This document shows positions 14,926 to 30,945 of a stretch of 64,000 bases of DNA, piece by piece. Source of the DNA: Chionoecetes opilio. Taxonomy: Eukaryota; Arthropoda; Malacostraca; Decapoda; Majidae. The stretch lies in assembly GCA_016584305.1 (NCBI GenBank), contig JACEEZ010019061.1, positions 1-64,000 of the forward strand, written 5' to 3'. The position numbers and the translations under genes are program-made. Under the pieces are notes generated by a model. It saw only the letters and a list, made by a program, of their open reading frames with translations, did not search any database and was not told the origin of the DNA. Numbering within the stretch: the first letter of the stretch is position 1; each line of letters opens with the position of its first letter.

Positions 14926-15863
14926 TGTAGTGTTCATTTTGACCATCTACACCTTAGTTACCATTATGTAGTGCCCACCTTGGGAGTGTACTCTACAGTC
15001 CTGGTTACTCCGCTGCCACCACCCACATTAAGTGGGAAAAAAAATATATGATTGAACAAAAAATAAAAGATTTAAGAAAATATGTATGTTGGAAACTGAA
15101 TGATAACTCGTTAATATATTTCTAATTATAATATATTCAACTCTTTACTGTCTCACTTCCCAACTGGTGTACATTCATAAGTTATCTTAATATTAAGATT
15201 TCCTTCCCTCCTAGCGATACGCACGCGAAATGCTCAAGTCGTTATCCTAATATAATTTACTATCTTTGGTAACTTCAGTCGCACTGTTACCCCTTAACGA
15301 TACGCACATGTAATGCTCAAGTCGTTATCCTAATATCCGTTATCCTAATGTATACGTAGTCTATCCCACTTCCAACTGTTTCCCTCTCACTTATTTTTCA
15401 ATTTCCTTCTTTCTCCTTGTCCTCACACGGCTGGCTGTGACATGTTGTGGTTGCCCCCTTCTGCTAATTTGTGAGCGCTTGGCCCCCTGGTCCGCCAACA
15501 GCATCCTACCTTGGGACCCTAAGTAATGCACTTCATTAGTCTTGGTCAACAAAAGAATCACCAGTAAGTCATGTCTACATCTCTAGTTAACAAACATTTC
15601 ACAACATACCTTTACCAAGGGCGAGAATATCACCTTCCCACAGGCGACTTAACTCAACGAACGTCGAGCTGCTTCTAAAATTATTCTAACCTAGAATCCC
15701 CGTTCTCACCTCGTTTCGCTACGTGTCTTAATTACTACTGGTTTAAAATATAAGCCTAACCAGTGATTCAGGAATGAGGCGTGGAGGAAAATTCCTCGTT
15801 AGCTTATTGATACTTATGTGTTATTTCATCTCTTCCCCTATTAATGTAATTTCTCGCGTTACA
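14926..15863 (-). repeat. LTR (3' LTR of the minus-strand element)
   Basis: In coding orientation it starts TGTAACGCGAG (15863) and ends GAACACTACA (14926), giving the TG...CA termini of LTRs. It is nearly identical to 22235-23162. Two variants of a 'gatacgcac-aatgctcaagtcgttatcctaata' unit repeat inside it. Confidence 0.93.
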
Positions 15864-15880
15864 TAGCTTCTTCCCCCAAA
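15864..15880 (-). promoter_or_regulatory. polypurine tract
   Basis: On the minus strand the sequence just before the 3' LTR is a purine run containing GGGGGAAGAAG, the expected plus-strand primer for an LTR element. Confidence 0.75.
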
Positions 15881-16731
15881 AAAATTTCCTTATGCCTCAG
15901 TCCTTCATCAAGCATCCTACCGGATATCTAACTAAAAATAAAAAAAAATTATCAAATCCATCACACAAAATTTCATATAAATTTTCTTAGGATTTTCTAT
16001 CACTCACAAACAAATATTCTCATCCCGCACATTCCAATTCTTCCAACAAATTTACAACAAAATGAGATAGTATGTATTCTTAACTTATCACTTCCCTCAC
16101 CCAGAGTAGATTTGACCATTTGGGGAATACCCACTCTAAATGTGATGACTCTACTACCTTGAAATGAGAACCTTCTCACTTCCTCTCTTATTTGTTAAGG
16201 CCGAAACCCTATAGAGTCGCAACTGGACTCGTCCCTCTAGTCTGGAGTGGTCAATTTCCATTTTTACCCCCCTAATCCTAGGCATAGGTGCGTAGGGAGA
16301 AATCACGACTGGATCTACTCCAAACCCTCAGTATCTTGGGATAAGGCTCACCTCCTGCTTGAGGCATACATACTCCTGCGTCTATCACCCATCGAGCAAA
16401 GCTCAGAGCCAAGCACATCCTTGGGTCTAACGACAACCTAGCGGGTTTAGTGTTCAGTGCAATCTGTGTGCACCCTCTAAAGCAAAAATAAAATGTTTAA
16501 ACCACTACAAGTCTGTCTAGGGGACCTTCCTCAAAATCTCTCTTTCACTAGAGAAGTGGTAAACGTTAATCTCTTTCTCTCTAGAGGTTAACTCTTATCG
16601 CCTGTCATCACCATTGTTCTAAGTATCTCCTCACTGGTCTCCTCTCTCTAGGTGGGAGTTGCTCAAGTTCTTCTTCTACAACTACTATCTCTGCTGGTTC
16701 CAACAGCCAGCCATCTTGTCCTACATATCGC
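15881..16731 (-). other. 3' untranslated region of the LTR element
   Basis: Between the integrase end and the polypurine tract there is no extended frame on the minus strand. I see nothing like an envelope gene (no signal peptide or membrane-anchor frame). Confidence 0.6.
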
Positions 16732-16920
16732 TTAATTTGCTCGGCCGCGCGCTGAAACATGTTTGCCGTCAAATATATTTTCTAATACATATGAACCTCC
16801 ATCTCTCAATACTTCCACCACTTTGTATGGTCCCAACCACTTAACTGAAAGTTTTCTATTGGTGCCCGTCTCAAACGTTCTCTTTTTACCCACGCCAATT
16901 CGTCTTTTTCCAACCTTCAT
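16732..16920 (-). CDS. pol: integrase C-terminal GPY/F module
   Basis: A 62-codon frame contains KWLGPYKVVEVL followed by YVLEN, the GPY/F signature of gypsy integrase C-termini that binds DNA non-specifically. It follows the catalytic-core frame with a frame change in a 35 nt overlap (16886-16920), so it is the tail of the same polyprotein separated by an indel. Its stop at 16732 marks the end of pol. Confidence 0.8.
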   Translation of the reverse strand: MKVGKRRIGVGKKRTFETGTNRKLSVKWLGPYKVVEVLRDGGSYVLENIFDGKHVSARGRAN

Positions 16921-17332
16921 TTTTCCTTTTCACATTAGCTTTCTCCCGCCATTTTCTACCTCTCTCCAAATTTGTTGTTTTGATTATTTCGTGTGCCACT
17001 GTTGTTTCATCCTCTGAGTCAATTTGTGGTAATTTCACACTAATCAACCTTGGAGCGTATCGGGAAAAAAAAGCATAGAAAGGTTGGGTACCCATTGTCT
17101 CATGCAGTGCACTATTTAATACTCTTTGAGTTTCTAAGAGATAATTGGGCCACCTATGAGGATAACCCTTGCACAGGTTTGAGAGAATTGTTTTCATTGT
17201 TCGGTGCATCCTTTCTGAGATACTATTACCTTGTGGATGGTAAGGCGTGGTGTATCCTAATTGTATCTCACATGAGTCACACAACTCTTTGAATTGTTGT
17301 GACGTAAACTCCTTAGCATTATCCAATAACAA
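16886..17332 (-). CDS. pol: integrase catalytic core (second Asp and Glu)
   Basis: A 148-codon frame begins near LLDNAKEFTSQQF, which holds the second catalytic Asp, and continues through YHPQGN and SERMHRT, which holds the catalytic Glu. The first catalytic Asp region lies upstream at about 17440-17530 in other frames (visible pieces PLERISID and HGYRYVLTIID). The D,D-35-E layout is therefore recognisable, but the reading frame is interrupted at least twice in integrase. Confidence 0.85.
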   Translation of the reverse strand: MLLDNAKEFTSQQFKELCDSCEIQLGYTTPYHPQGNSISERMHRTMKTILSNLCKGYPHRWPNYLLETQRVLNSALHETMGTQPFYAFFSRYAPRLISVKLPQIDSEDETTVAHEIIKTTNLERGRKWREKANVKRKNEGWKKTNWRG

Positions 17333-17571
17333 GGTATGTGGTGCTCCAAATAAACTGACATATTCCCTAAAATTCTTACATACTTCGTCGGTTCATCCTA
17401 GTCCTTAATTTATAAAAGGTAGTAAACCTACTATAATGATCTATTATGGTTAATACATAGCGGTACCCGTGGGCTCCCGTTCCCATGTCTGTTAGTCTAT
17501 GCTTATCCTCTCTAGAGGTTTACTTATTTGATGGTATTTCTTGCCATTGTTGTTGGAGTCCACGACTACCC
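17333..17571 (-). pseudogene. pol: integrase segment with frame breaks (first catalytic Asp)
   Basis: This segment connects the zinc-binding domain to the core. Integrase-like pieces are visible in two different frames near 17440-17530, including the SID block that normally carries the first Asp of the DDE triad. No single frame spans it. The breaks may be assembly indels. Confidence 0.65.
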
Positions 17572-17910
17572 TTATGCTGTTGGCATGCCCAAACAGTTCC
17601 TCACATATTCTCTCACATCCGTTTTCAGGTTGGGCCAATAAAAATAGCCTTCTGCTTTACTTATTGATTTCCTCTGCCCTAAATGACCCGATTCCTTATT
17701 GTGAATTAATTCCAAAGCCGCTCGCTTCAGTTCACTAGGTAAAACCAATAAATAGTGTATACTGTTATCGAACTGTGGTTTAGTTAAATATAAAATTCCT
17801 CCTTCTATTACGAATTGATCTAAAGTATTTCTGGGGTATTTAGATCTGGGTATTCTGCCTCCTTCTAGATACTCTATCATTTCTCTCCATCTATGGTCCT
17901 CTCGTTGCAT
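17572..17910 (-). CDS. pol: integrase N-terminal zinc-binding domain and linker
   Basis: A 112-codon frame includes HNKESGHLGQ and YFYWPNLKTDV, the HH part and conserved tryptophan region of the H2C2 integrase zinc finger, followed by one Cys (RNC). The second Cys is lost in a frame break just before the stop. It follows the RNase H region after a short gap. The first Met may not be a true start because the domain is part of the pol polyprotein. Confidence 0.82.
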   Translation of the reverse strand: MQREDHRWREMIEYLEGGRIPRSKYPRNTLDQFVIEGGILYLTKPQFDNSIHYLLVLPSELKRAALELIHNKESGHLGQRKSISKAEGYFYWPNLKTDVREYVRNCLGMPTA

Positions 17911-18233
17911 TTCCTTTACTTCTTCTTTATTTTTTTCCTAACCACCTCTCTTCTACTTGACATCGAATGATTCTTACTGGTCTACTAAGTTGGTCTGCTA
18001 CAGGTTCTTTTTCCCTGCTTTATACTCTATCTGATACCTATAGTCTCTCATCTCTAGGATCCATCTGTTCATCCTAGGTGACTTATTTTCGTTGTTTAAA
18101 GACTGACACTAACGGTTGGTGGTCTGTTCTGATGATCACCTTGGTTCCCCACAGGAAATGATGAAACTGTCTGCAAGCTAAAACTATTCCTAAGGCTCCC
18201 TATCTGTCGCTGAGTATCGCGTCTCAACTGGTT
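17911..18233 (-). pseudogene. pol: RNase H continuation, frame broken
   Basis: Downstream of the RT frame, RNase H-like pieces continue in shifted frames: a YSATDREP block, a block around TDHQP position (about 18110-18140), and RMNRWILEMRDYRYQIEYKAG, seen in parts, which is the typical RNase H to integrase linker. Several one-base shifts interrupt it. Confidence 0.7.
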
Positions 18234-19655
18234 TTAATTTCTTTGAAAATAAGAGATTACTTGGGCTTTGACCTCATCACTATACTGCATCAGTACTGCT
18301 CCTACGTGAGTTTGGCTAGCATCGGTATCCAACACAAATGGCTTATTAATGTTGGCCTTAGTTAAGATGGGAGCACTAGTCAGTTTATCCTTTAATATCT
18401 GAAATGCTTGCTGGCTTTCCTCTGACCATTTGAATGGGTTATCTTTCTTGGTCAAATTAGTGATAGGCACCGCTATCTTAGCGAATCCTTCTATGTACTT
18501 CCTATAGAAACCTACCATACCTAGAAATCTTCTGGTTTCCTTGACATTAGTTGGGGGTTTCATTTTGTCTACGGCTGCCATATTGTCTGGGTTGGGTTGG
18601 TAACCTTCCTTGTTCACTAAATGTCCCAGAAAATTAACTTTTCTTTGTCCTATTTTACATTTGGTCAGATTTAATTTGACTCCAAATCTAGTCAGATGTC
18701 CAAATAATTTATCGATCCTTTCCAATAATTTCTCGTAACTGGGTGCCATCAGGATTATGTCATCCAGATAATTTTTAAGCCAATTTTCTTTCAGTAAAGG
18801 AGTTAAGATCTGGGCTAATTTGCGTGAGAAAATTGCTGCACTGCAATTTAATCCAAAGGGAAGTCTTTTGAATCTATATAGGGATATCCCTTCACTGAAA
18901 GTTGTTAGATCTTTACTACTTTCATCTAACAGTACTTGATAATACGCATCTTTCATATCTAGGGTGGCATAGTATTCATAGCCCGCTACCGATTCTACTA
19001 ACTCTTCCAATTTAGGTAGGGGGTGTATATCAGTGGCTAAATGTTGATTCACCTTTCTATAGTCTAGACACATCCTTTTTTCCCCATTCGGCTTGTTAAC
19101 CAGTACTATAGGACTTAACCACGCAGCTGTGGAATTTTCTATTATGTCCTTCTCTTCCATTTCTCTCAACATTTTAGCTATTAGTTCTTTAGCTTTCTCC
19201 GGATACCTATATGTAACTCTTCTACATGGTTTTGGATCTAACACCTGAATATGAGCGGGTTCAGTTTTCATGGTACCTAGTTCTCCTGCATCTAAGATAA
19301 ATAGTTCATGGTGCTCTTTTATCAAGGCGAAAAGATGATGCCTCTCCTGTTCACTTAAGTGTTTCCAGTCTCCTTTTTCTAGAATTGCCTGTATTCGCTC
19401 CGGTCGAGTACCATTACCCTCGCTACCATCACTATCGGGTAACATTGCGTTACTCATCCTAGTGGTGAGACAACGTGTTTCTGCCGTAACTTGCTGTTCT
19501 TGAATTTCTTCTGAGTTTACTACTCTATATTTAGCTAAAATTGTACCAGGACGTAACTTCAGCTGTCCACTACTGTTATTAATTATTGGTAGAAAGATAG
19601 TTCTTTCTTTTGTAACCTGGACGCATACAGGTGCTATATTTTGCACTTGTTTTTT
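18234..19655 (-). CDS. pol: reverse transcriptase and start of RNase H
   Basis: The open frame (its first Met is at 19709, but the biological entry is probably by frameshift at 19655-19649) encodes an RT with TLDMKDAYYQ (first catalytic Asp), LPFGLNCS, and YLDD (residues 314-317 counted from the 19709 Met), then the connection domain RRFLGMVGFYRKYI and the RNase H start VLDTDAS. The stop at 18234 truncates RNase H, which resumes in other frames. RT copies genomic RNA into DNA in the particle. The frame lies -1 relative to protease, and the part upstream of 19655 has no family resemblance, which argues against the 19709 Met as a real start. Confidence 0.93.
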   Translation of the reverse strand, partial: KKQVQNIAPVCVQVTKERTIFLPIINNSSGQLKLRPGTILAKYRVVNSEEIQEQQVTAETRCLTTRMSNAMLPDSDGSEGNGTRPERIQAILEKGDWKHLSEQERHHLFALIKEHHELFILDAGELGTMKTEPAHIQVLDPKPCRRVTYRYPEKAKELIAKMLREMEEKDIIENSTAAWLSPIVLVNKPNGEKRMCLDYRKVNQHLATDIHPLPKLEELVESVAGYEYYATLDMKDAYYQVLLDESSKDLTTFSEGISLYRFKRLPFGLNCSAAIFSRKLAQILTPLLKENWLKNYLDDIILMAPSYEKLLERIDKLFGHLTRFGVKLNLTKCKIGQRKVNFLGHLVNKEGYQPNPDNMAAVDKMKPPTNVKETRRFLGMVGFYRKYIEGFAKIAVPITNLTKKDNPFKWSEESQQAFQILKDKLTSAPILTKANINKPFVLDTDASQTHVGAVLMQYSDEVKAQVISYFQRN

Positions 19656-20212
19656 GTGTCCACCAAGAGAGTGGTTCCCTCTACCTCGTCCACTGACAAT
19701 TCTAACCATTGAGTTCTTTCTGGTTTTATGGTCACACTTTGTTGTATCCTTATATGACAGCTTGATTTATGCACCTCCTCTTCGCACTTTTCACTCTTAA
19801 CTGGGTCTGATGGTACCGTATCGGTGTTTTTAAAAAAATTTAAGGGGTAAGTTAGGTTAGCCCACATGACTTTCTTTTGTTTGTAATTGATAGTTATTTC
19901 TTCTAGTCCTATTATGTTCATCCCTATCAGGGCTTGGGTGGATAAATATTGATCTGGAACAGCTAACATCAACACTTCTATTGTTCTATCTATTCCTAAG
20001 GGTATTTTTACTCTTACTTGACCTAAGATTCTCAACTCCTTGCCCGTTATACCGGTTAAACTAGGGATGTTACTGTGGGTTCTTATTTTAAGTTGTAAAT
20101 CTAAAGCTGCACTCTTTTTTATAAGTGAATATTCGCTTCCTGTGTCTAATAAAACTTCCATGACGTGATCATTAATGGCTAAGGGGATTATTGGAGATTG
20201 ATGTTTAACTAG
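19634..20212 (-). CDS. pro: retroviral-type aspartic protease
   Basis: LLDTGSEYSLI carries the catalytic DTG(S) and ALIGMNII fits the conserved block near the flap-distal end. The frame is open from immediately after the gag stop (codon CTA at 20212-20210) to 19634, so 17 codons of family-like sequence (SPIIPLAINDHV) precede the first Met at 20161. This indicates that protease is made as a gag extension, not from its own Met. It cleaves the gag and pol polyproteins. Its end overlaps the RT frame by 76 nt. Confidence 0.88.
   Translation of the reverse strand, partial: LVKHQSPIIPLAINDHVMEVLLDTGSEYSLIKKSAALDLQLKIRTHSNIPSLTGITGKELRILGQVRVKIPLGIDRTIEVLMLAVPDQYLSTQALIGMNIIGLEEITINYKQKKVMWANLTYPLNFFKNTDTVPSDPVKSEKCEEEVHKSSCHIRIQQSVTIKPERTQWLELSVDEVEGTTLLVDTKNKCKI
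19649..19655 (-). promoter_or_regulatory. -1 frameshift slippery site A AAA AAC
   Basis: In the protease frame the codons are ACA AAA AAC, which contain the heptamer A AAA AAC in the correct phase for -1 slippage. The RT frame is exactly -1. Downstream are two short potential hairpins: GTGC/GCAC and ACCTG/CAGGT. The protease stop is 13 nt past the heptamer. Confidence 0.7.
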
Positions 20213-20215
20213 TCA
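20209..20215 (-). promoter_or_regulatory. gag stop in readthrough context UGA-CUA-G
   Basis: Gag ends in TGA followed by CTAG, and the same frame continues into protease without another stop. UGA CUA is the well-known leaky stop context of alphaviruses and some cellular genes. The phase was checked codon by codon from 20218 to 20159. Confidence 0.7.
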
Positions 20216-21367
20216 CCGGGCAGATCCTGTCCTCCCCGGACAATTTGGATTCCCTCTTCTACAATCTATTCTCCCGCAATCGAAACAAGTGTTGCTATTT
20301 GTCTTCCTTCGACAGTCTGCGGCTGAGTGGTTGTTCATTCTACAGTAGGGACAAAACATCTGTGAATCCCTTCTCCAAGCTAAACTCGACGGCTTCTGGT
20401 CGTTACATACTTTCCAGGCTTGTAATTTCCTTCCCATCCCTTCCATCTGTGCACGCAGTTCTCTAACCTCTGACTGACTAGCCGACAGTTCCTGTGACTG
20501 TTCCCGTGTGTTGGGAGGACTACTCTGGGAAGCGGGTGTTATTTCTGACGGCTGTCGTGGCTGGTTTACCGCGAACATTTTGTCGGTGTCTCTTCCGATG
20601 GCAATGGCCCTCTCGGTCTCCACTCTCTCTATGAATTTTTTTAGAGGGATTTGTTCATCCATAAAAAGTTCTAATTTCTCTTTACTGTGAATTGGCAATC
20701 CTCGCAATAGTTTTTTCTTAATGATTTTATCCCTACGGGGAATTTCTCCTGGGTATTTTGACTTCGCTTCCAGTATGGCGTATTTGCATTTGAGTTTATT
20801 TGCAAATTCTTGTGGATCTTCCATCCAGTCATACTGGACTTCAGAAATACTGTTAAGGATTCTGTCGACATTATTGTCTGTTAGCTCATCGTATAACCAA
20901 TAAGTTAGGGTGTTCCATGATCTAAAATCATGCTGACTGAGGGCATTCTGTATCAATAAGGCTAATTGCGGATCTACTCTATACATAAGTATCCTCTTTC
21001 TCTCCTTCAAATCCTCTGAACAACTTTCTACCTGGGAAAGGAAAACTGTCAACCTTCCCTCTGCTTCGATACCTTGTAAATCCCCGAGGTTCAGTATTTG
21101 TATATCTCTCGGTTTTATTAATAATCTCATTGGTCTCCTAACTTCCTGCTCCTCCTCCTTATTTTTCAAAAATAACTCAACCGTTTCTTTCGTCTTTGCT
21201 ACTTCTTGTTCTAGCTGACTCATCCACTTGAATCGCTCGCATTGTTCGGGACGGGTTTCGCCTCTCTCTTGTGTTACTCCTTCCTCCTTCTTAAGCTCTC
21301 TACCAATTGCTTCCTTTTGGAGGAAATCCTCCAAATCCTTTACTGAAAAACCCATTAAATCCTCCAT
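20213..21367 (-). CDS. gag: gag polyprotein (capsid and nucleocapsid)
   Basis: A 384-residue protein starts at an ATG with a good context (AAGATGG). The N-terminal ~90 residues are charged and probably helical. A central capsid-like region (about 90-260) has the spacing of gypsy gag proteins, with DWMEDPQEFANKL and KIIKKKLLRGLP as recognisable blocks. The C-terminus has a CCHC zinc knuckle (CPYCRMNNHSAADC, residues 339-352) and a second Cys cluster (C361, C364, C369, C376) lacking the His. It ends in a UGA that appears designed for readthrough into protease. It assembles the particle and binds RNA. The frame is intact. Confidence 0.9.
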   Translation of the reverse strand: MEDLMGFSVKDLEDFLQKEAIGRELKKEEGVTQERGETRPEQCERFKWMSQLEQEVAKTKETVELFLKNKEEEQEVRRPMRLLIKPRDIQILNLGDLQGIEAEGRLTVFLSQVESCSEDLKERKRILMYRVDPQLALLIQNALSQHDFRSWNTLTYWLYDELTDNNVDRILNSISEVQYDWMEDPQEFANKLKCKYAILEAKSKYPGEIPRRDKIIKKKLLRGLPIHSKEKLELFMDEQIPLKKFIERVETERAIAIGRDTDKMFAVNQPRQPSEITPASQSSPPNTREQSQELSASQSEVRELRAQMEGMGRKLQAWKVCNDQKPSSLAWRRDSQMFCPYCRMNNHSAADCRRKTNSNTCFDCGRIDCRRGNPNCPGRTGSAR

Positions 21368-21615
21368 CTTAAAAAAATAATTTCCTTCCGTAAATAAAAA
21401 AAAATGTATATTTCCCTGATTTTTCCAACTAGTGTTGGGCTTCCACGGTGGCTATTAAACTCACGACAACCCTCCGAAGATGCTTACTTGCTGGGGCGTC
21501 TTCCAAGCCTCAACACTTATTTACGTATTTTTATGTCCTAATTACGGTGGGTGACCAGGCCCTCCTAACGCCTGCACTGCCGCCCATGCCTGATAGTTGT
21601 GTCCTATTACATTTA
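21368..21615 (-). other. leader between SGNH-like ORF and gag
   Basis: About 250 nt without an extended minus-strand frame. No clear splice acceptor or second promoter is obvious. How gag is translated downstream of another ORF is not evident. Confidence 0.5.
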
Positions 21616-22123
21616 CTAGCTTCTCATATACCTACCTGCAAAACCCCTGCTCGTCCTACCGAAATGCACCCCGTCATACGCTAAGCCGTGTGCATAGGGT
21701 TTGGCGTTAAAGCTTAATTTCCTATACTGCGTTAGTTTTTTTATTTAATTTATTGTTTATTGCCCTGCTTATTTTATCATAATTTTCTTGTTCTACTCTC
21801 CTAGCGTAATGGTCTGTTATGATCCTATGTTCTATCATACAAATCCTTATCTCACATCGGCACGTTGCCTGCAATGTTTCTACTACTTTCCTAATATCTT
21901 CCACTATTGCTTCCACCTTACTGTTGCCTTTAATATCATTACTGCCTAACCATAGGATGACTAACTCAAATTCTTTCTGTAATACTCCGTTGAGTCTGTC
22001 ATCTACAAGGAAGGTTCTAGCCTTGCCTCCCGGCGCTCTGTAAACTTCTACTGTTACGTTAGGCTCATCCACCTCCACAGTCTGAGGGATCTGGCTATGT
22101 CCTACTAACGCTACTCTATACAT
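21616..22123 (-). CDS. extra ORF: SGNH hydrolase-like protein upstream of gag
   Basis: The first ATG is at 22123. The frame begins MYRVALVGHSQIP, where GHS fits the block I nucleophile motif (usually GDS). It then has ILWLGSNDI (residues 55-64), the GxND block III motif. The frame stops at 21722, but the next frame carries AYDGVHFG (about 21651-21680), a perfect block V DxxH dyad, and then ends at 21616. The shift falls at an A7 run near 21738, a typical site of sequencing error. Repaired length would be about 168 residues, near the minimum for SGNH folds. SGNH enzymes are Ser esterases or lipases, and esterase domains are known in ORF1 of CR1-type LINEs. The block I Asp is replaced by His, so activity is uncertain. 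It could be an accessory protein of the element. Confidence 0.7.
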
Positions 22124-22218
22124 GGATATGACCCTGTGTACTGGCACTTGGCAAAAATAATTAACTAACAAGGAGTTAGTTGGCTCGTGGGTAAGCGGAA
22201 ACCATCGAATGGATCCAA

Positions 22219-22234
22219 ACCGCTGTCACCAAAA
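22219..22234 (-). promoter_or_regulatory. candidate primer binding site
   Basis: On the minus strand, 3 nt after the 5' LTR end, is TGGTGACAGCGG (22231-22220). TGG after a short spacer is usual for sites matching a tRNA 3' CCA. The first seven bases resemble those paired by tRNA-Trp in some gypsy clades, but I cannot confirm the tRNA. Confidence 0.6.
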
Positions 22235-23162
22235 TGTAGTGTTCATTTTGACCATCTACACCTTAGTTACCATTATGTAGTGCCCACCTTGGGAGTGTAC
22301 TCTACAGTCCTGGTTACTCCGCTGCCACCACCCACATTAAGTGGGAAAAAAAATATATGATTGAACAAAAATAAAAGATTTAAGAAAATATGTATGTTGG
22401 AAACTGAATGATAACTCGTTAATATATTTCTAATTATAATATATTCAACTCTTTACTGTCTCACTTCCCAACTGGTGTACATTCATAAGTTATCTTAATA
22501 TTAAGATTTCCTTCCCTCCTAGCGATACGCACGCGAAATGCTCAAGTCGTTATCCCCAATATAATTTTACTATCTTTGGTAACTTCAGTCGCACTGTTAC
22601 CCCTTAACGATACGCACATTAATGCTCAAGTCGTTATCCTAATATAATGTAAAACGTAGTCTATCCACTTCCAACTGTTTCCCTCTCACTTATTTTTCAA
22701 TTTCCTTCTTTCTCCTTGTCCTCACACGGCTGGCTGTGACATGTTGTGGTTGCCCCCTTCTGCTAATTTGTGAGCGCTTGGCCCCCTGGTCCGCCAACAG
22801 CATCCTACCTTGGGACCCTAAGTAATGCACTTCATTAGTCTTGGTCAACAAAAGAATCACCAGTAAGTCATGTCTACATCTCTAGTTAACAAACATTTCA
22901 CAACATACCTTTACCAAGGGCGAGAATATCACCTTCCCACAGGCGACTTAACTCAACGAACGTCGAGCTGCTTCTAAAATTATTCTAACCTAGAATCCCC
23001 GTTCTCACCTCGTTTCGCTACGTGTCTTAATTACTACTGGTTTAAAATATAAGCCTAACCAGTGATTCAGGAATGAGGCGTGGAGGAAAATTCCTCGTTA
23101 GCTTATTGATACTTATGTGTTATTTCATCTCTTCCCCTATTAATGTAATTTCTCGCGTTACA
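22235..23162 (-). repeat. LTR (5' LTR of the minus-strand element)
   Basis: It matches 14926-15863 over its whole length with a few indels, mostly in a short 'gttatcctaata' tandem section (about 22545-22660). The promoter for the element should lie here; no clear TATA was assigned. Confidence 0.93.
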
Positions 23163-23224
23163 TGTGTATGTAGTACTACAGATTGGTGATTGGTGTTTGT
23201 CTGTGTATGCAGTGATGAAGTAAC

Positions 23225-23483: not shown

Positions 23484-24221
23484 TCGTCCATAACTGGGTA
23501 CATTCATAGTTTAATATAACTCCTCCTCCTAGCGATACACGCAAATGCTAAGCGTTATCCTAATATATACTAACTTGGTACTTCAGTCGCCTGTACCCTA
23601 ACGATACGCACATAATGCCTCAAGTCGTTATCATATAATACTAACTTGACTTCGTCCACTGTACCTTAACGATACGCACATTAATGCTCAAGTCGTTATC
23701 CTAAATAATGTATACTAGTCTATCCCACTTCCAACTGTTTCCTCTCACTTATTTTTCAATTCCTTCTTTCTCCTTGTCCTCACACGGCTGGCTGTGACAT
23801 GTTGTGGTTGCCCCCTCTGCTCATTTGTGAGCGCTTGGCCCCCTGGTCCGCCAACCGCATCCTACCTTGGGACCCTAAGTAATGCACTTAATTAGTCTTG
23901 GTCAACAAAAAAGAATCACCAGTAAGTCATGTCTACATCTCTAGTTAACAAACATTTCACAACATACCTTTACCAAGGGCGAGAATATCACCTTCCCACA
24001 GGCGACTTAACTCAACGAACGTCGAGCTGCTTCTAAAATTATTCTAACCTAGAATCCCCGTTCTCACCTCGTTTCGCTACGTGTCTTAATTACTACTGGT
24101 TTAAAATATAAGCCTAACCAGTGATTCAGGAATGAGGCGTGGAGGAAAATTCCTCGTTAGCTTATTGATACTTATGTGTTATTTCATCTCTTCCCCTATT
24201 AATGTAATTTCTCGCGTTACA
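23484..24221 (-). repeat. third, truncated LTR copy
   Basis: From about 23490 to 24221 the sequence follows the same LTR to its terminal CGCGTTACA, but it lacks the first ~250 bp in plus orientation and has many small deletions in its first 230 bp. An N at 23483 marks poor assembly at the truncation. It is either a solo or truncated LTR of a second insertion, or a misassembled copy. Confidence 0.85.
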
Positions 24222-24409
24222 CTGTGCTTTCAATAATGTCAACCTTAACGATATTCCTTGAGCCTCTGTAAGAGGTAATGAAGTGTACGACACTTTTACT
24301 CTCGGCAACATCAAGAAAGAGCTTTGGCAGCGCTACAATCGTATTTTGTGATGGCAAGCAGGGGCGGAGCCTAAATAAGTATAATTTTACTCCGGAAGGA
24401 CACTACAAA

Positions 24410-25748: not shown

Positions 25749-27365
25749 TCAAAAGTGGATCTTCATGTGCTGGGCAATATCAGGCTTTGTCTTGAAACAC
25801 TTGCTACAAATATCACACTTGAACTCCCGCAAGCCAGTGTGTCTAAAGGTGTGTTTGTTGAGTTCAGAAATGGTATAAAACCTTTTCCCACACTCTAGAC
25901 ACTCGTGATTCTTAACACCACTGTGTGTCAGGGTGTGTGTGGTGAGGGAATGCTTTGTAGTAAATCTTTTCCCACACTCTAAACATTCATAATTCTTATC
26001 ACCACTGTGTGTCAGAGTGTGTTTGTTGAGTTCAGAAATGGTATAAAACCTTTTCCCACACTCTAGACACTCGTGATTCTTAACACCACTGTGTGTCAGG
26101 GTGTGTTTGGTGAGGGAATGCTTTGCAGTAAATCTTTTCCCACACTCTAAACATTCATAATTCTTATCACCACTGTGTGTCAGGGTGTGTTTGGTGAGGT
26201 CACCCTTTGTAGTAAATCTTTTCCTACACTCTAAACATTCATAATTCTTAACACCATTGTGTGTCAGGGTGTGTGTGGTGAGGTGACTCTTTGTAGTAAA
26301 TCTTTTCCCACACTCTAAACATTCATAATTCTTATCACCACTGTGTGTCAGAGTGTGTTTGTTGAGTTCAGAAATGGTATAAAACCTTTTCCCACACTCT
26401 AGACACTCGTGATTCTTAACACCACTGTGTGTCAGGGTGTGTGTGGTGAGGGAACGCTTTGCAGTAAATCTTTTCCCACACTCTAAACATTCATAATTCT
26501 TATCACCACTGTGTGTCAGGGTGTGTTTGGTGAGGTCACCCTTTGTAGTAAATCTTTTCCTACACTCTAAACATTCATAATTCTTAACACCACTGTGTGT
26601 CAGGGTGTGTGTGGTGAGGTTACCCTTTGTAGTAAATCTTTTCCCACACTCTAAACATTCATAATTCTTAACACCACTGTGTGTCAGGGTGTGTGTGGTG
26701 AGGTTTATCTTTGTAGTAAATCTTTTCCCACACTCTAAACATTCATAATTCTCAACACCACTGTGTGTCAGGGTGTGTGTGGTGAGGGAACGCTTTGCAG
26801 TAAATCTTTTCCCACACTCTAAACATTCATAATCTTTTAAACCACTGTGTGTCAGGGTGTGTTTGGTGAGGTCACCCTTTCTAGTAAATCTTTTTCTACA
26901 CTCTAAACATTCATAATTCTTAACACCACTGTGTGTCAGGGTGTGTGTGGTGAGGTTATTCTTTGTAGTAAATCTTTTCCCACACTCTAAACATTCATGA
27001 TTCTTAACACCATTGTGTGTCAGGGTGTGTGTGGTGAGGTGACTCTTTGTAGTAAATCTTTTCCCACACTCTAAACATTCATAATTCTTAACACCATTGT
27101 GTGTCAGGGTGTGTGTGGTGAGGTCACTCTTTCTAGCAAATCTTTTCCCACACTCTACTAAACATTCATAATTCTTAACACCAATGTGTATCACTGAATG
27201 ACTCTTGAGCAGACTCTTGTATTTGAATGTTTTGTCACACTGCTGACACTTCAGCTCACTGCGTGCCTTGTGGCCTGAGCTGCCTGCCTCCAGGTGATTC
27301 TTGCCATCACCCCTGTGCCTCCCCACCCCTGAGGCAGACTGACCCTGCTGCTCCCGGCCACTCAT
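25749..27365 (-). CDS. C2H2 zinc-finger protein with 18 tandem fingers
   Basis: A 538-residue frame from the first in-frame ATG (27365) is intact. After a ~38-residue basic, low-complexity leader come 18 C2H2 fingers (first Cys near residue 40), nearly all exact 28-residue repeats with the framework ECLECGKRF...LTTHTLTH. Linkers are SGVKN, NGVKN or SGDKN in place of TGEKP. Only helix positions vary: SDL, SHL, NNL, GDL, RSL, INL, GNL, SEL, HSL. Finger 2 has an extra residue (CLVEC, C-x3-C). Finger 1 and finger 18 are the most diverged. Probable nuclear DNA-binding protein; no KRAB, ZAD or BTB is in this exon. Near-identical framework with variable contacts indicates recent tandem duplication. 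The frame is open further upstream (to about 27504) without an ATG, so an upstream exon is possible. Confidence 0.9.
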   Translation of the reverse strand: MSGREQQGQSASGVGRHRGDGKNHLEAGSSGHKARSELKCQQCDKTFKYKSLLKSHSVIHIGVKNYECLVECGKRFARKSDLTTHTLTHNGVKNYECLECGKRFTTKSHLTTHTLTHNGVKNHECLECGKRFTTKNNLTTHTLTHSGVKNYECLECRKRFTRKGDLTKHTLTHSGLKDYECLECGKRFTAKRSLTTHTLTHSGVENYECLECGKRFTTKINLTTHTLTHSGVKNYECLECGKRFTTKGNLTTHTLTHSGVKNYECLECRKRFTTKGDLTKHTLTHSGDKNYECLECGKRFTAKRSLTTHTLTHSGVKNHECLECGKRFYTISELNKHTLTHSGDKNYECLECGKRFTTKSHLTTHTLTHNGVKNYECLECRKRFTTKGDLTKHTLTHSGDKNYECLECGKRFTAKHSLTKHTLTHSGVKNHECLECGKRFYTISELNKHTLTHSGDKNYECLECGKRFTTKHSLTTHTLTHSGVKNHECLECGKRFYTISELNKHTFRHTGLREFKCDICSKCFKTKPDIAQHMKIHF

Positions 27366-27540
27366 GCTGCTGCCCGGCCCCACAGCCTCCACCGCAGCAA
27401 CACTCTGGCCACCACACGCGACGGCCGGTCCTGCGGGAACCCTCGGGGATGCCGCAGCGAGCCGGGTCAGTGCCGGGCGGGGCAGCCGGCCTGGACTGTG
27501 ACCTCAGCACCTGCAACAGTGGTGACAGTCAGCACACAGA
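27366..27540 (-). promoter_or_regulatory. GC/CpG-rich 5' region with possible splice acceptor
   Basis: Upstream of the zinc-finger ATG the sequence turns GC- and CpG-rich. A minus-strand acceptor-like ccactgttgcag ends at 27511, so the coding exon could begin there. A stop lies in frame just inside it, so the ATG at 27365 would still be the start. Confidence 0.35.
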
Positions 27541-29597: not shown

Positions 29598-30880
29598 ATG
29601 CACTGTCCTGTAGCCGACAATCCACGGGAAATGGGTCAAAACAGCTAAAATACACGACTGTTTCGGCAAAAAGTATCAAAATATTACCAGATTCTATACG
29701 CCATGTTAGGAAAAGGTTCTATTTTACCTATTTTAGGATTTATTTAAGGTTGCCTGTATACCTGTAGCTGCCTAAGTGTCTACAGTTACCTTATGCACTG
29801 TCCTGTAGCCGACAATCCACGGGAAATGGGTCAAAGCAGCTAAAATACACGACTGTTTCGGCAAAAAGTATCAAAATATTACCAGATTCTATACGCCATG
29901 TTAGGAAAATTGTTCTTATTTTAGGGTTATTTAAGGGTTTATTTAGGTTGCCTGTGTACCTGTAGCGGCCTAAGTGTCTACAGTTACCTTGTGCACTGTC
30001 CTGTAGCCGTTAGTCCTGTAGAAATGGGTCAAAACAGCTAAAATACACGACTGTTTCGGCAAAAAGTATCAAAATATTACCAGATTATATACGCCATGTT
30101 AGGAAAAATGTTCTTATTTTACCTTATTTTAGGGTTATTTAAGGGTTTATTTAAGTTGCCTGTATACCTGTAGCGGCCTAAGTGTCTACAATTACCTTGT
30201 GCACTGTCCTGTAGCCGACAATCCACGGGAAATGGGTCAAAACAGCTAAAATACACGACTGTTTCGGCAAAAAGTATCAAAATATTACCAGATTCTATAC
30301 GCCATGTTAGGAAAAAGGTTCTTATTTTACCTTATTTTAGGGTTATTTAAGGGTTTATTTAAGTTGCCTGTATACCTGTAGCGGCCTAAGTGTCTACAGT
30401 TACCTTGTGCACTGTCCTGTAGCCGACAATCCACGGGAAATGGGTCAAAACAGCTAAAATACACGACTGTTTCGGCAAAAAGTATCAAAATATTACCAGA
30501 TTCTATACGCCATGTTAGGAAAAAGGTTCTTATTTTACCTTATTTTAGGGTTATTTAAGGGTTTATTTAGGTTGTCTGTATACCTGTAGCGGCCTAAGTG
30601 TCTACAGTTACCTTATGCACTGTCCTGTAGCCGACAATCCACGGGAAATGGGTCAAAGCAGCTAAAATACACGACTGTTTCGGCAAAAAGGATCAAAATA
30701 TTTCCATTCTATACGCCATGTTAGGATTTTTTTTTCTTATTTTACCTTATTTTAGGGTTATTTAAGGGTTTATTTAGGTTGCCTGTATACCTGTAGCTGC
30801 CTAAGTGTCTACAGTTACCTTGTGCACTGTCCTGTAGCCGTTAGTCCTGTAGAAATGGGTCAAAACAGCTTAAACAAAGG
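29598..30880. repeat. satellite, ~205 bp period, about 6.5 copies
   Basis: Units start with gcactgtcctgtagccgaca at about 29600, 29795, 29993, 30201, 30409, 30617 and 30824. Each holds gggaaatgggtcaaaacagc, atacacgactgtttcggcaa and gcctaagtgtctacagttac. The last unit runs into unrelated sequence near 30870. Confidence 0.92.
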
Positions 30881-30945
30881 ACTGTTTTGCTCGCCGTCCG
30901 GTTTCTGGGTCCAAACCAAACAGCTGATTACAATGTCACTGCCAG

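What the first reader, a model, noticed from the sequence alone, without database searches (positions are those of the whole stretch)
21616..22123. LTR retrotransposon with an SGNH hydrolase-like ORF upstream of gag
Between the primer site and gag there is an extra ORF with the three hallmark blocks of an SGNH hydrolase in order: GHS near the start, GSND in the middle, and DGVH near the end (the last after a single frame change at an A7 run). Esterase domains are known in ORF1 of CR1-type LINEs, but I do not know of a Ty3/gypsy element with one in front of gag. It may help membrane or lipid handling of particles, or be a captured host gene.
Basis: partly seen in the sequence, partly recalled or inferred. 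Interest (0 to 1): 0.75.

Follow-up and report, generated by a model that had tools for sequence, protein, structure and literature searches.

The report
Crab retrotransposon with esterase before gag
A family of crab Ty3/gypsy retrotransposons carries, ahead of its capsid gene, an extra gene for an SGNH-type esterase that natural selection has kept intact in many copies, which suggests that the element uses lipid or ester chemistry in its life cycle.

The parts
22235..23163 (-). 5' LTR of the element (minus-strand sense)
   Evidence: Pairs with 14926-15864: 942 columns, 2 mismatches, 7 gap openings; TG...CA ends; candidate 4-bp target duplication TGTG in simple-repeat sequence
22220..22231 (-). 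primer-binding-site-like TGGTGACAGCGG just inside the LTR
   Evidence: Sequence read; same 12 letters upstream of the ORF in 22 of 60 copies; the tRNA was not identified (no tRNA gene in the window)
21737..22123 (-). SGNH ORF ('ORF0'), first part: Met, GHS block, oxyanion G, GSND block
   Evidence: tblastn of C. opilio protein P0001 residues 1-129 at 88% identity; Pfam Lipase_GDSL_2 9e-6, below cut-off
21619..21744 (-). SGNH ORF, part in another frame holding the catalytic DGVH block
   Evidence: P0001 residues 128-161 match at 21640-21741, 79%; frame listing
21545..21631 (-). SGNH ORF, C-terminal part, back in the first frame
   Evidence: Frame listing; same C-terminus in most one-frame genomic copies
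20213..21367 (-). gag ORF from its Met, with a CX2CX4HX4C knuckle
   Evidence: Open frame 20213-21451; P0093 matches 80% over its full length
19634..20212 (-). aspartic protease
   Evidence: Pfam gag-asp_proteas 5.9e-7, above cut-off
18234..19766 (-). reverse transcriptase and RNase H
   Evidence: Pfam RVT_1 4.9e-27, RT_RNaseH_2 2.5e-17
17572..17937 (-). integrase zinc-binding part
   Evidence: Pfam Integrase_H2C2 3.4e-14
16886..17392 (-). integrase core part (open reading frame interrupted between this and the previous part)
   Evidence: Pfam rve 1.5e-5, below cut-off
16753..16887 (-). integrase C-terminal GPY/F module (WLGPYKVVEVL), in another frame than the core part
   Evidence: P0104 residues 226-270 match, 82%; motif name recalled and as used in PMC5408684
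14926..15864 (-). 3' LTR of the element
   Evidence: See the 5' LTR

Best explanation
This is a Ty3/gypsy LTR retrotransposon family of the snow crab whose first gene ('ORF0', 190 aa in 22 of 32 one-frame copies) encodes a cytosolic SGNH hydrolase. It is the first long ORF on the genomic RNA, about 110 nt after the LTR, and so is probably translated ahead of gag. My most likely mechanism: the enzyme is an accessory esterase that acts on a lipid or other acyl ester in the cytosol or at membranes during assembly or transport of Gag particles, as proposed for the ZfL2-1 LINE esterase. Shown here by computation: the predicted fold, an intact active site in most relatives, the same genomic place in many copies, and purifying selection. 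Inferred: catalysis, the substrate, the membrane role and the mode of translation.
Against: No activity, substrate, transcript or protein is shown. Six of 78 family rows have lost one active-site residue, and 2 of 32 one-frame crab copies have Ala at the oxyanion-Gly column. The window copy itself is broken, and 28 of the 60 copies inspected do not keep a one-frame ORF by the criterion. A short upstream ATG lies in the leader at 22205, so ORF0 is not the very first start codon. A weak OSK match in 6 of 78 rows keeps a non-catalytic, Oskar-like binding role possible.
Confidence: 0.6

Rival explanations
1. The SGNH protein has kept its active-site geometry but works as a binding protein (RNA or lipid), like the non-catalytic SGNH domain of Oskar, packaging or tethering the element RNA.
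For: Pfam OSK matches 6 of 78 family rows at E<=0.01 and the window ORF at 0.012; six rows lack one catalytic residue. Oskar is called a non-catalytic SGNH protein in PMC3905857 (passage).
Against: 72 of 78 rows keep all five active-site residues at 23% mean column identity, more than a pure binding role would need; Lipase_GDSL_2 matches 76 of 78 rows at E<=0.01.
Confidence: 0.2
2. The ORF is a host gene captured as a passenger; it hitch-hikes in the element without a role.
For: 28 of 60 copies do not keep a one-frame ORF by the criterion used, and the 60 lean towards the better preserved ones.
Against: Low omega between subfamilies (252 pairs, median dS 0.68, omega 0.145), below that of gag; the ORF is retained in both subfamilies. 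Of 92 related proteins only three bear a name, none of them a known host enzyme, which says little.
Confidence: 0.07
3. The enzyme acts on host glycans or receptors, like the SGNH-fold haemagglutinin-esterases (recalled), i.e. an entry or exit function of a virus-like cycle.
Against: The family starts directly at the first strand, without room for a signal peptide, and no env-like ORF of 80 aa or more lies between integrase and the 3' LTR on the coding strand of this copy (a broken one could be missed). Close structural matches to bacterial esterases of many substrates say little about substrate.
Confidence: 0.08
4. SGNH and gag are joined by splicing into one protein, as in the C. opilio gene model P0001, and act as an enzyme-Gag fusion.
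For: P0001 joins SGNH in frame to the gag N-terminus; a GTAAAT donor-like site is present in 21 of the 23 copies listed.
Against: An AG directly before the gag ATG is present in only 7 of the same 23 copies. The fusion looks like an automatic gene-model intron.
Confidence: 0.1

Closest known systems
Bdelloid rotifer Vesta LTR retrotransposons with a GDSL esterase/lipase ORF3 (PMC5408684; passages and section 3.1 seen)
   Same: LTR retrotransposon with an extra SGNH/GDSL ORF, invariant catalytic residues, no TM or coiled coil
   Different: There it is ORF3, numbered after gag and pol and in place of env (the figure was not seen); here it precedes gag. All Vesta families carry a dUTPase between PR and RT; none was matched here.
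ZfL2-1 (CR1-clade LINE) ORF1p esterase, PDB 4c1b (PMC3905857; passages seen)
   Same: Retroelement-encoded SGNH esterase upstream of the polymerase; a full-length sequence match in the PDB (E 1.1e-6) and Foldseek rank 25 (E 8.1e-6)
   Different: LINE without a Gag homologue; here a true gag follows. The Foldseek superposition is poor (rmsd 20; the crystal is domain-swapped). The LINE-specific H191 aligns with Trp/Phe here, and S228 with a column that has Ser in 3 of 78 rows (my reading of the alignment; counts).
Ngaro elements of Xenopus with an SGNH_hydrolase ORF (PMC9210276; passages seen)
   Same: Retroelement with gag-like, RT/RH and an SGNH ORF
   Different: Tyrosine-recombinase element; the SGNH ORF is after YR
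Grass LTR elements Retrosat2/RIRE3/RIRE8 with ORF0 before gag-pol (PMC3485330; passages seen; Ty3/gypsy by recall)
   Same: Extra ORF in front of gag-pol; the authors infer from structure models that a group of ORF0s are hydrolases acting on ester bonds
   Different: Plant lineage; [quoted passage not shown] no SGNH assignment in the passages seen; here the ORF evolves more slowly than gag
Texim SGNH genes moved by fish Helitrons (PMC4021074; passages seen)
   Same: SGNH hydrolase moved by a transposable element
   Different: DNA transposon; intron-bearing genes

Membership tests
SGNH hydrolase superfamily | Blocks with catalytic Ser, oxyanion Gly and Asn, and Asp-x-x-His, in order | tested here: met
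   Present in window pieces; 72 of 78 relatives keep all five
SGNH hydrolase superfamily | Flavodoxin-like alpha/beta/alpha fold | tested here: met
SGNH hydrolase superfamily | Pfam curated cut-off | tested here: inconclusive
   Window ORF 26.7 bits against 32.9 (PF13472) and 19 against 23.6 (PF00657); P0001 passes PF00657, 26.2 against 23.6, but not PF13472, 26.3 against 32.9
SGNH hydrolase superfamily | Esterase activity | not testable with these tools
   No assay
Ty3/gypsy LTR retrotransposon | LTR pair with TG/CA ends and PBS | tested here: met
   tRNA not identified
Ty3/gypsy LTR retrotransposon | PR-RT-RH-IN order with GPY/F module | tested here: met
Ty3/gypsy LTR retrotransposon | RT phylogeny placing it in a named clade | not tested
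   No reference RT set on hand
LINE-type transposon esterase clade (CR1/RTEX/Penelope) | Clade-specific residues H191 and S228 (ZfL2-1 numbering) | tested here: not met
   H191 column: W 42, F 22, Y 5, others, no His; S228 column: Ser in 3 of 78 (mapping read by hand from the alignment, counts)
Vesta-type LTR elements | dUTPase between PR and RT; GDSL as ORF3 | tested here: not met
   No dUTPase match at E<=1 in the PR and RT frames; ORF lies before gag
Env-bearing gypsy (errantivirus-like) | Env ORF after pol | tested here: inconclusive
   No minus-strand ORF of 80 aa or more between 15864 and 16886 in this copy; a broken env could be missed, and no other copy was looked at there

The most novel reading that the evidence does not exclude
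An independent, old capture of an SGNH hydrolase created a lineage of marine-animal gypsy elements in which a catalytically active cytosolic esterase is the first product of the genomic RNA and is under stronger constraint than Gag. The roughly 90 related proteins in public data would then mostly be ORF0s of such elements, and lipid or ester chemistry would be a general step of their particle cycle.
Probability: 0.45. Interest if true: 0.7.

Novelty: new variant of a known kind. Interest (0 to 1): 0.58.

Why it matters
SGNH esterases have been reported in LINEs, Ngaro, Penelope-like and bdelloid LTR elements, and their role there is unsettled; the bdelloid study reports no significant departure from neutrality for its extra ORFs (passage seen). 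Here a true gag and an esterase sit in the same element, and the esterase is kept under purifying selection across many crab copies, more strongly than N-terminal gag. That makes the question 'what does a retrotransposon need an esterase for?' testable in a system with a defined particle protein.

Tried and rejected
Phage and plasmid collections: no match for the window ORF or P0002. Scans of viral contigs with P0001 and with the family alignment, and of prokaryote contigs with the alignment: no relative confirmed. PHROGs with five proteins: only weak hits (best 8.3e-4). Single-sequence PDB search with the window ORF: no SGNH hit, only a chance methyltransferase at E 1.4; the profile was needed. 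The SGNH-Gag fusion was considered and judged a gene-model artefact. Linkage of the metagenome relatives to gag could not be tested: no contig context, and no longest-contig length is shared between the SGNH list and the non-crab gag hits P0100 and P0102. The complementary test, how many gag copies lack the ORF, did not complete, so the 60 copies were all chosen by having the ORF. They also lean to the better preserved: 20 top loci and 40 further rows with near-full coverage; several full-coverage but more decayed rows lower in the list were not fetched. One-frame copies were picked by motifs VGHS, GSND and [DN]GVH, so S, N and H are invariant among them by construction; subfamilies A and B were split by locus number (order of identity), not by a tree; pairs are not independent; within A the dS values are small (median 0.021), so its omega is weak.

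Full report
What was checked. The finding lies in a minus-strand LTR retrotransposon. The LTRs (14926-15864 and 22235-23163) align over 942 columns with 2 mismatches and 7 gap openings. Just inside the 5' LTR is a primer-site-like TGGTGACAGCGG. Then come the SGNH ORF, gag, an aspartic protease (Pfam 5.9e-7), RT (4.9e-27) with RNase H, and integrase pieces (H2C2 3.4e-14; rve 1.5e-5, below cut-off). A GPY/F module follows. No minus-strand ORF of 80 aa or more lies between integrase and the 3' LTR in this copy. This order is Ty3/gypsy-like; the clade within Ty3/gypsy was not determined.

The ORF in the window. The first frame, 22225 to 21722, starts its protein at Met 22123 and holds VGHSQIP, RAPGGK and LGSND. 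DGVHF is read in another frame (21744-21619), and the C-terminal helix YEKLVNVI is back in the first frame (21631-21545). Pfam gives Lipase_GDSL_2 at 9e-6, Lipase_GDSL at 0.0016 and OSK at 0.012, all below the curated cut-offs. pol is also interrupted in this copy, with integrase in separate frames.

The host. The window is G000:C14660:1-64000 in an unnamed 1.94-Gb assembly. Contig lengths of four fetched pieces equal the contig lengths listed for four C. opilio gene models: 173749 for P0094 (L012), 160658 for P0001 (L030), 237301 for P0101 (L024) and 209671 for P0096 (L038). I infer that the host is the snow crab Chionoecetes opilio.

Relatives. One search with the window ORF gave 3 proteins: the C. 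opilio protein P0001 at 88% identity over 77% of the query, which continues into the gag N-terminus, and two metagenome proteins. A search with their alignment gave 92 proteins, including two Portunus trituberculatus proteins, P0022 and P0064; only these two and P0001 bear a name. I aligned 78 of the 92 (those of 160 aa or more; 14 shorter ones were left out). Residues G8, H9, G32, G60, N62, D63 and R100 are invariant, and S10, E98, D150 and H153 are among those kept in at least 90%. All five active-site residues are kept in 72 of 78; the six exceptions each lose one. On a maximum-likelihood tree of these rows plus the window ORF, the window joins P0001 (100/100), within a set of 17 rows (95/91) that includes Portunus P0022. 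Several long branches make the deeper tree unsure.

Same place in other copies. The own-genome search counted 151 matches, a lower bound. I examined 60 of them: the 20 loci returned by that search and 40 more chosen for near-full coverage; more decayed rows were not fetched. An LTR match lies upstream in 58 of 60; by my count of the list it is at least 200 nt long in 32, only 34 to 98 nt in 26, and absent in 2. The exact 12-letter primer site is upstream in 22 of 60. The first gag match begins 705 to 791 nt downstream of the SGNH start in 51 of 60; both flanks are present in 49 of 60. Why nine lack a gag match was not examined. 32 of 60 keep one open frame through VGHS, GSND and DGVH (33 by the looser criterion); 22 of the 32 are 190 aa long with their own stop, the others 162 to 197 aa. 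All 60 were found through the ORF itself, so they show conserved place, not how many gag copies lack the ORF; that search did not complete.

Selection. Nei-Gojobori dN/dS among the 32 one-frame copies: of 496 pairs, 412 have dS between 0.03 and 1.5, with median omega 0.165 and pooled omega 0.22; 4 of these pairs reach 1 or more. The 297 pairs with dS>0.2 have median 0.148. The same pairs read in shifted frames give 1.12 (402 pairs) and 1.67 (404 pairs). Between subfamilies A and B the SGNH median omega is 0.145 (252 pairs, median dS 0.68; pooled 0.20), within B 0.303 (142; pooled 0.35), within A 0.392 (75, median dS only 0.02; pooled 0.51). gag, taken over at most its first 230 codons and open over 150 or more in 20 of 60 copies, gives 0.237, 0.591 and 0.779 (92, 45 and 39 pairs; pooled 0.33, 0.63 and 0.67). 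Only 15 copies are in both sets, so the two genes are not compared on the same pairs throughout. Pairs share history, so these are descriptions rather than probabilities, but the direction is the same in all three comparisons. Constraint on the SGNH ORF is at least as strong as on N-terminal gag.

One protein or two. P0001 fuses SGNH to gag. The genomic locus on a contig of the same length (L030) has a separate 190-aa SGNH ORF. The fusion would need an intron from a GTAAAT site to the gag ATG; the donor-like site is in 21 of 23 copies in which the gag start was recognised (of 60), but AG directly before that ATG is in only 7 of 23. I take the fusion as a gene-model product, though splicing is not excluded. 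A second gene model, P0101, also shows LTR-like, SGNH and gag pieces in this order.

How it most likely works. The ORF starts 111 nt after the LTR and is the first long ORF of the RNA, though one upstream ATG lies in the leader. The protein starts at its first strand and has no room for a signal peptide in 72 of 78 relatives, so it should be cytosolic. Retained active sites argue for catalysis. The best guess is an accessory esterase that acts on lipids or other acyl esters where Gag particles assemble or move, by analogy with ZfL2-1, whose esterase is active and binds phospholipids (passages of PMC3905857, abstract included). That last step is inference.

Known and new. SGNH ORFs are published in LINEs (ORF1), Penelope-like elements, Ngaro elements (after YR) and bdelloid Vesta LTR elements (ORF3). 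An ORF0 in front of gag-pol is published in grass LTR elements, and an upstream accessory ORF in a planarian Burro-like gypsy element. The combination, SGNH before gag in a gypsy element, was not found in ten searches of the held open-access library; of the papers listed I read passages of twelve. Subscription papers and repeat databases were not searched. This is a new variant of a known kind.

Noticed in passing
23492-24226: A diverged LTR of the same family (93 to 94% to the element's LTRs over about 655 nt, many indels) stands alone next to the complete element.
   Followed up: partly
21368-21380, and the copies: Directly before the gag ATG 16 of 23 copies have a T-run followed by a G-run of variable length; the window copy has a T-run and AAG. 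A role in translation of gag is possible but untested.
   Followed up: partly
25749-27503 (minus): A 584-aa ORF of C2H2 zinc-finger-like repeats (84-nt period, 15.6 copies, 87% matches).
   Followed up: no
29599-30887: A 208-nt tandem repeat, 6.3 copies, 92% matches.
   Followed up: no
C. opilio gene model P0104 ('Protein canopy 1'): The predicted canopy protein begins with gag and an integrase C-terminal piece of this element family, either a gene-model artefact or exonisation.
   Followed up: no
proteins P0076, P0082, P0085, P0088, P0091: A subfamily with GGND (RGND in P0091) instead of GSND, with 48 member sequences for P0082 and contigs up to 19 kb; two members have Asn for the catalytic Asp. 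Host unknown.
   Followed up: no
14926-23163: The two LTRs differ by 2 substitutions but 7 gap openings, which hints at homopolymer indel errors in the assembly or slippage; the frame changes in the SGNH ORF and pol should be read with that in mind.
   Followed up: partly
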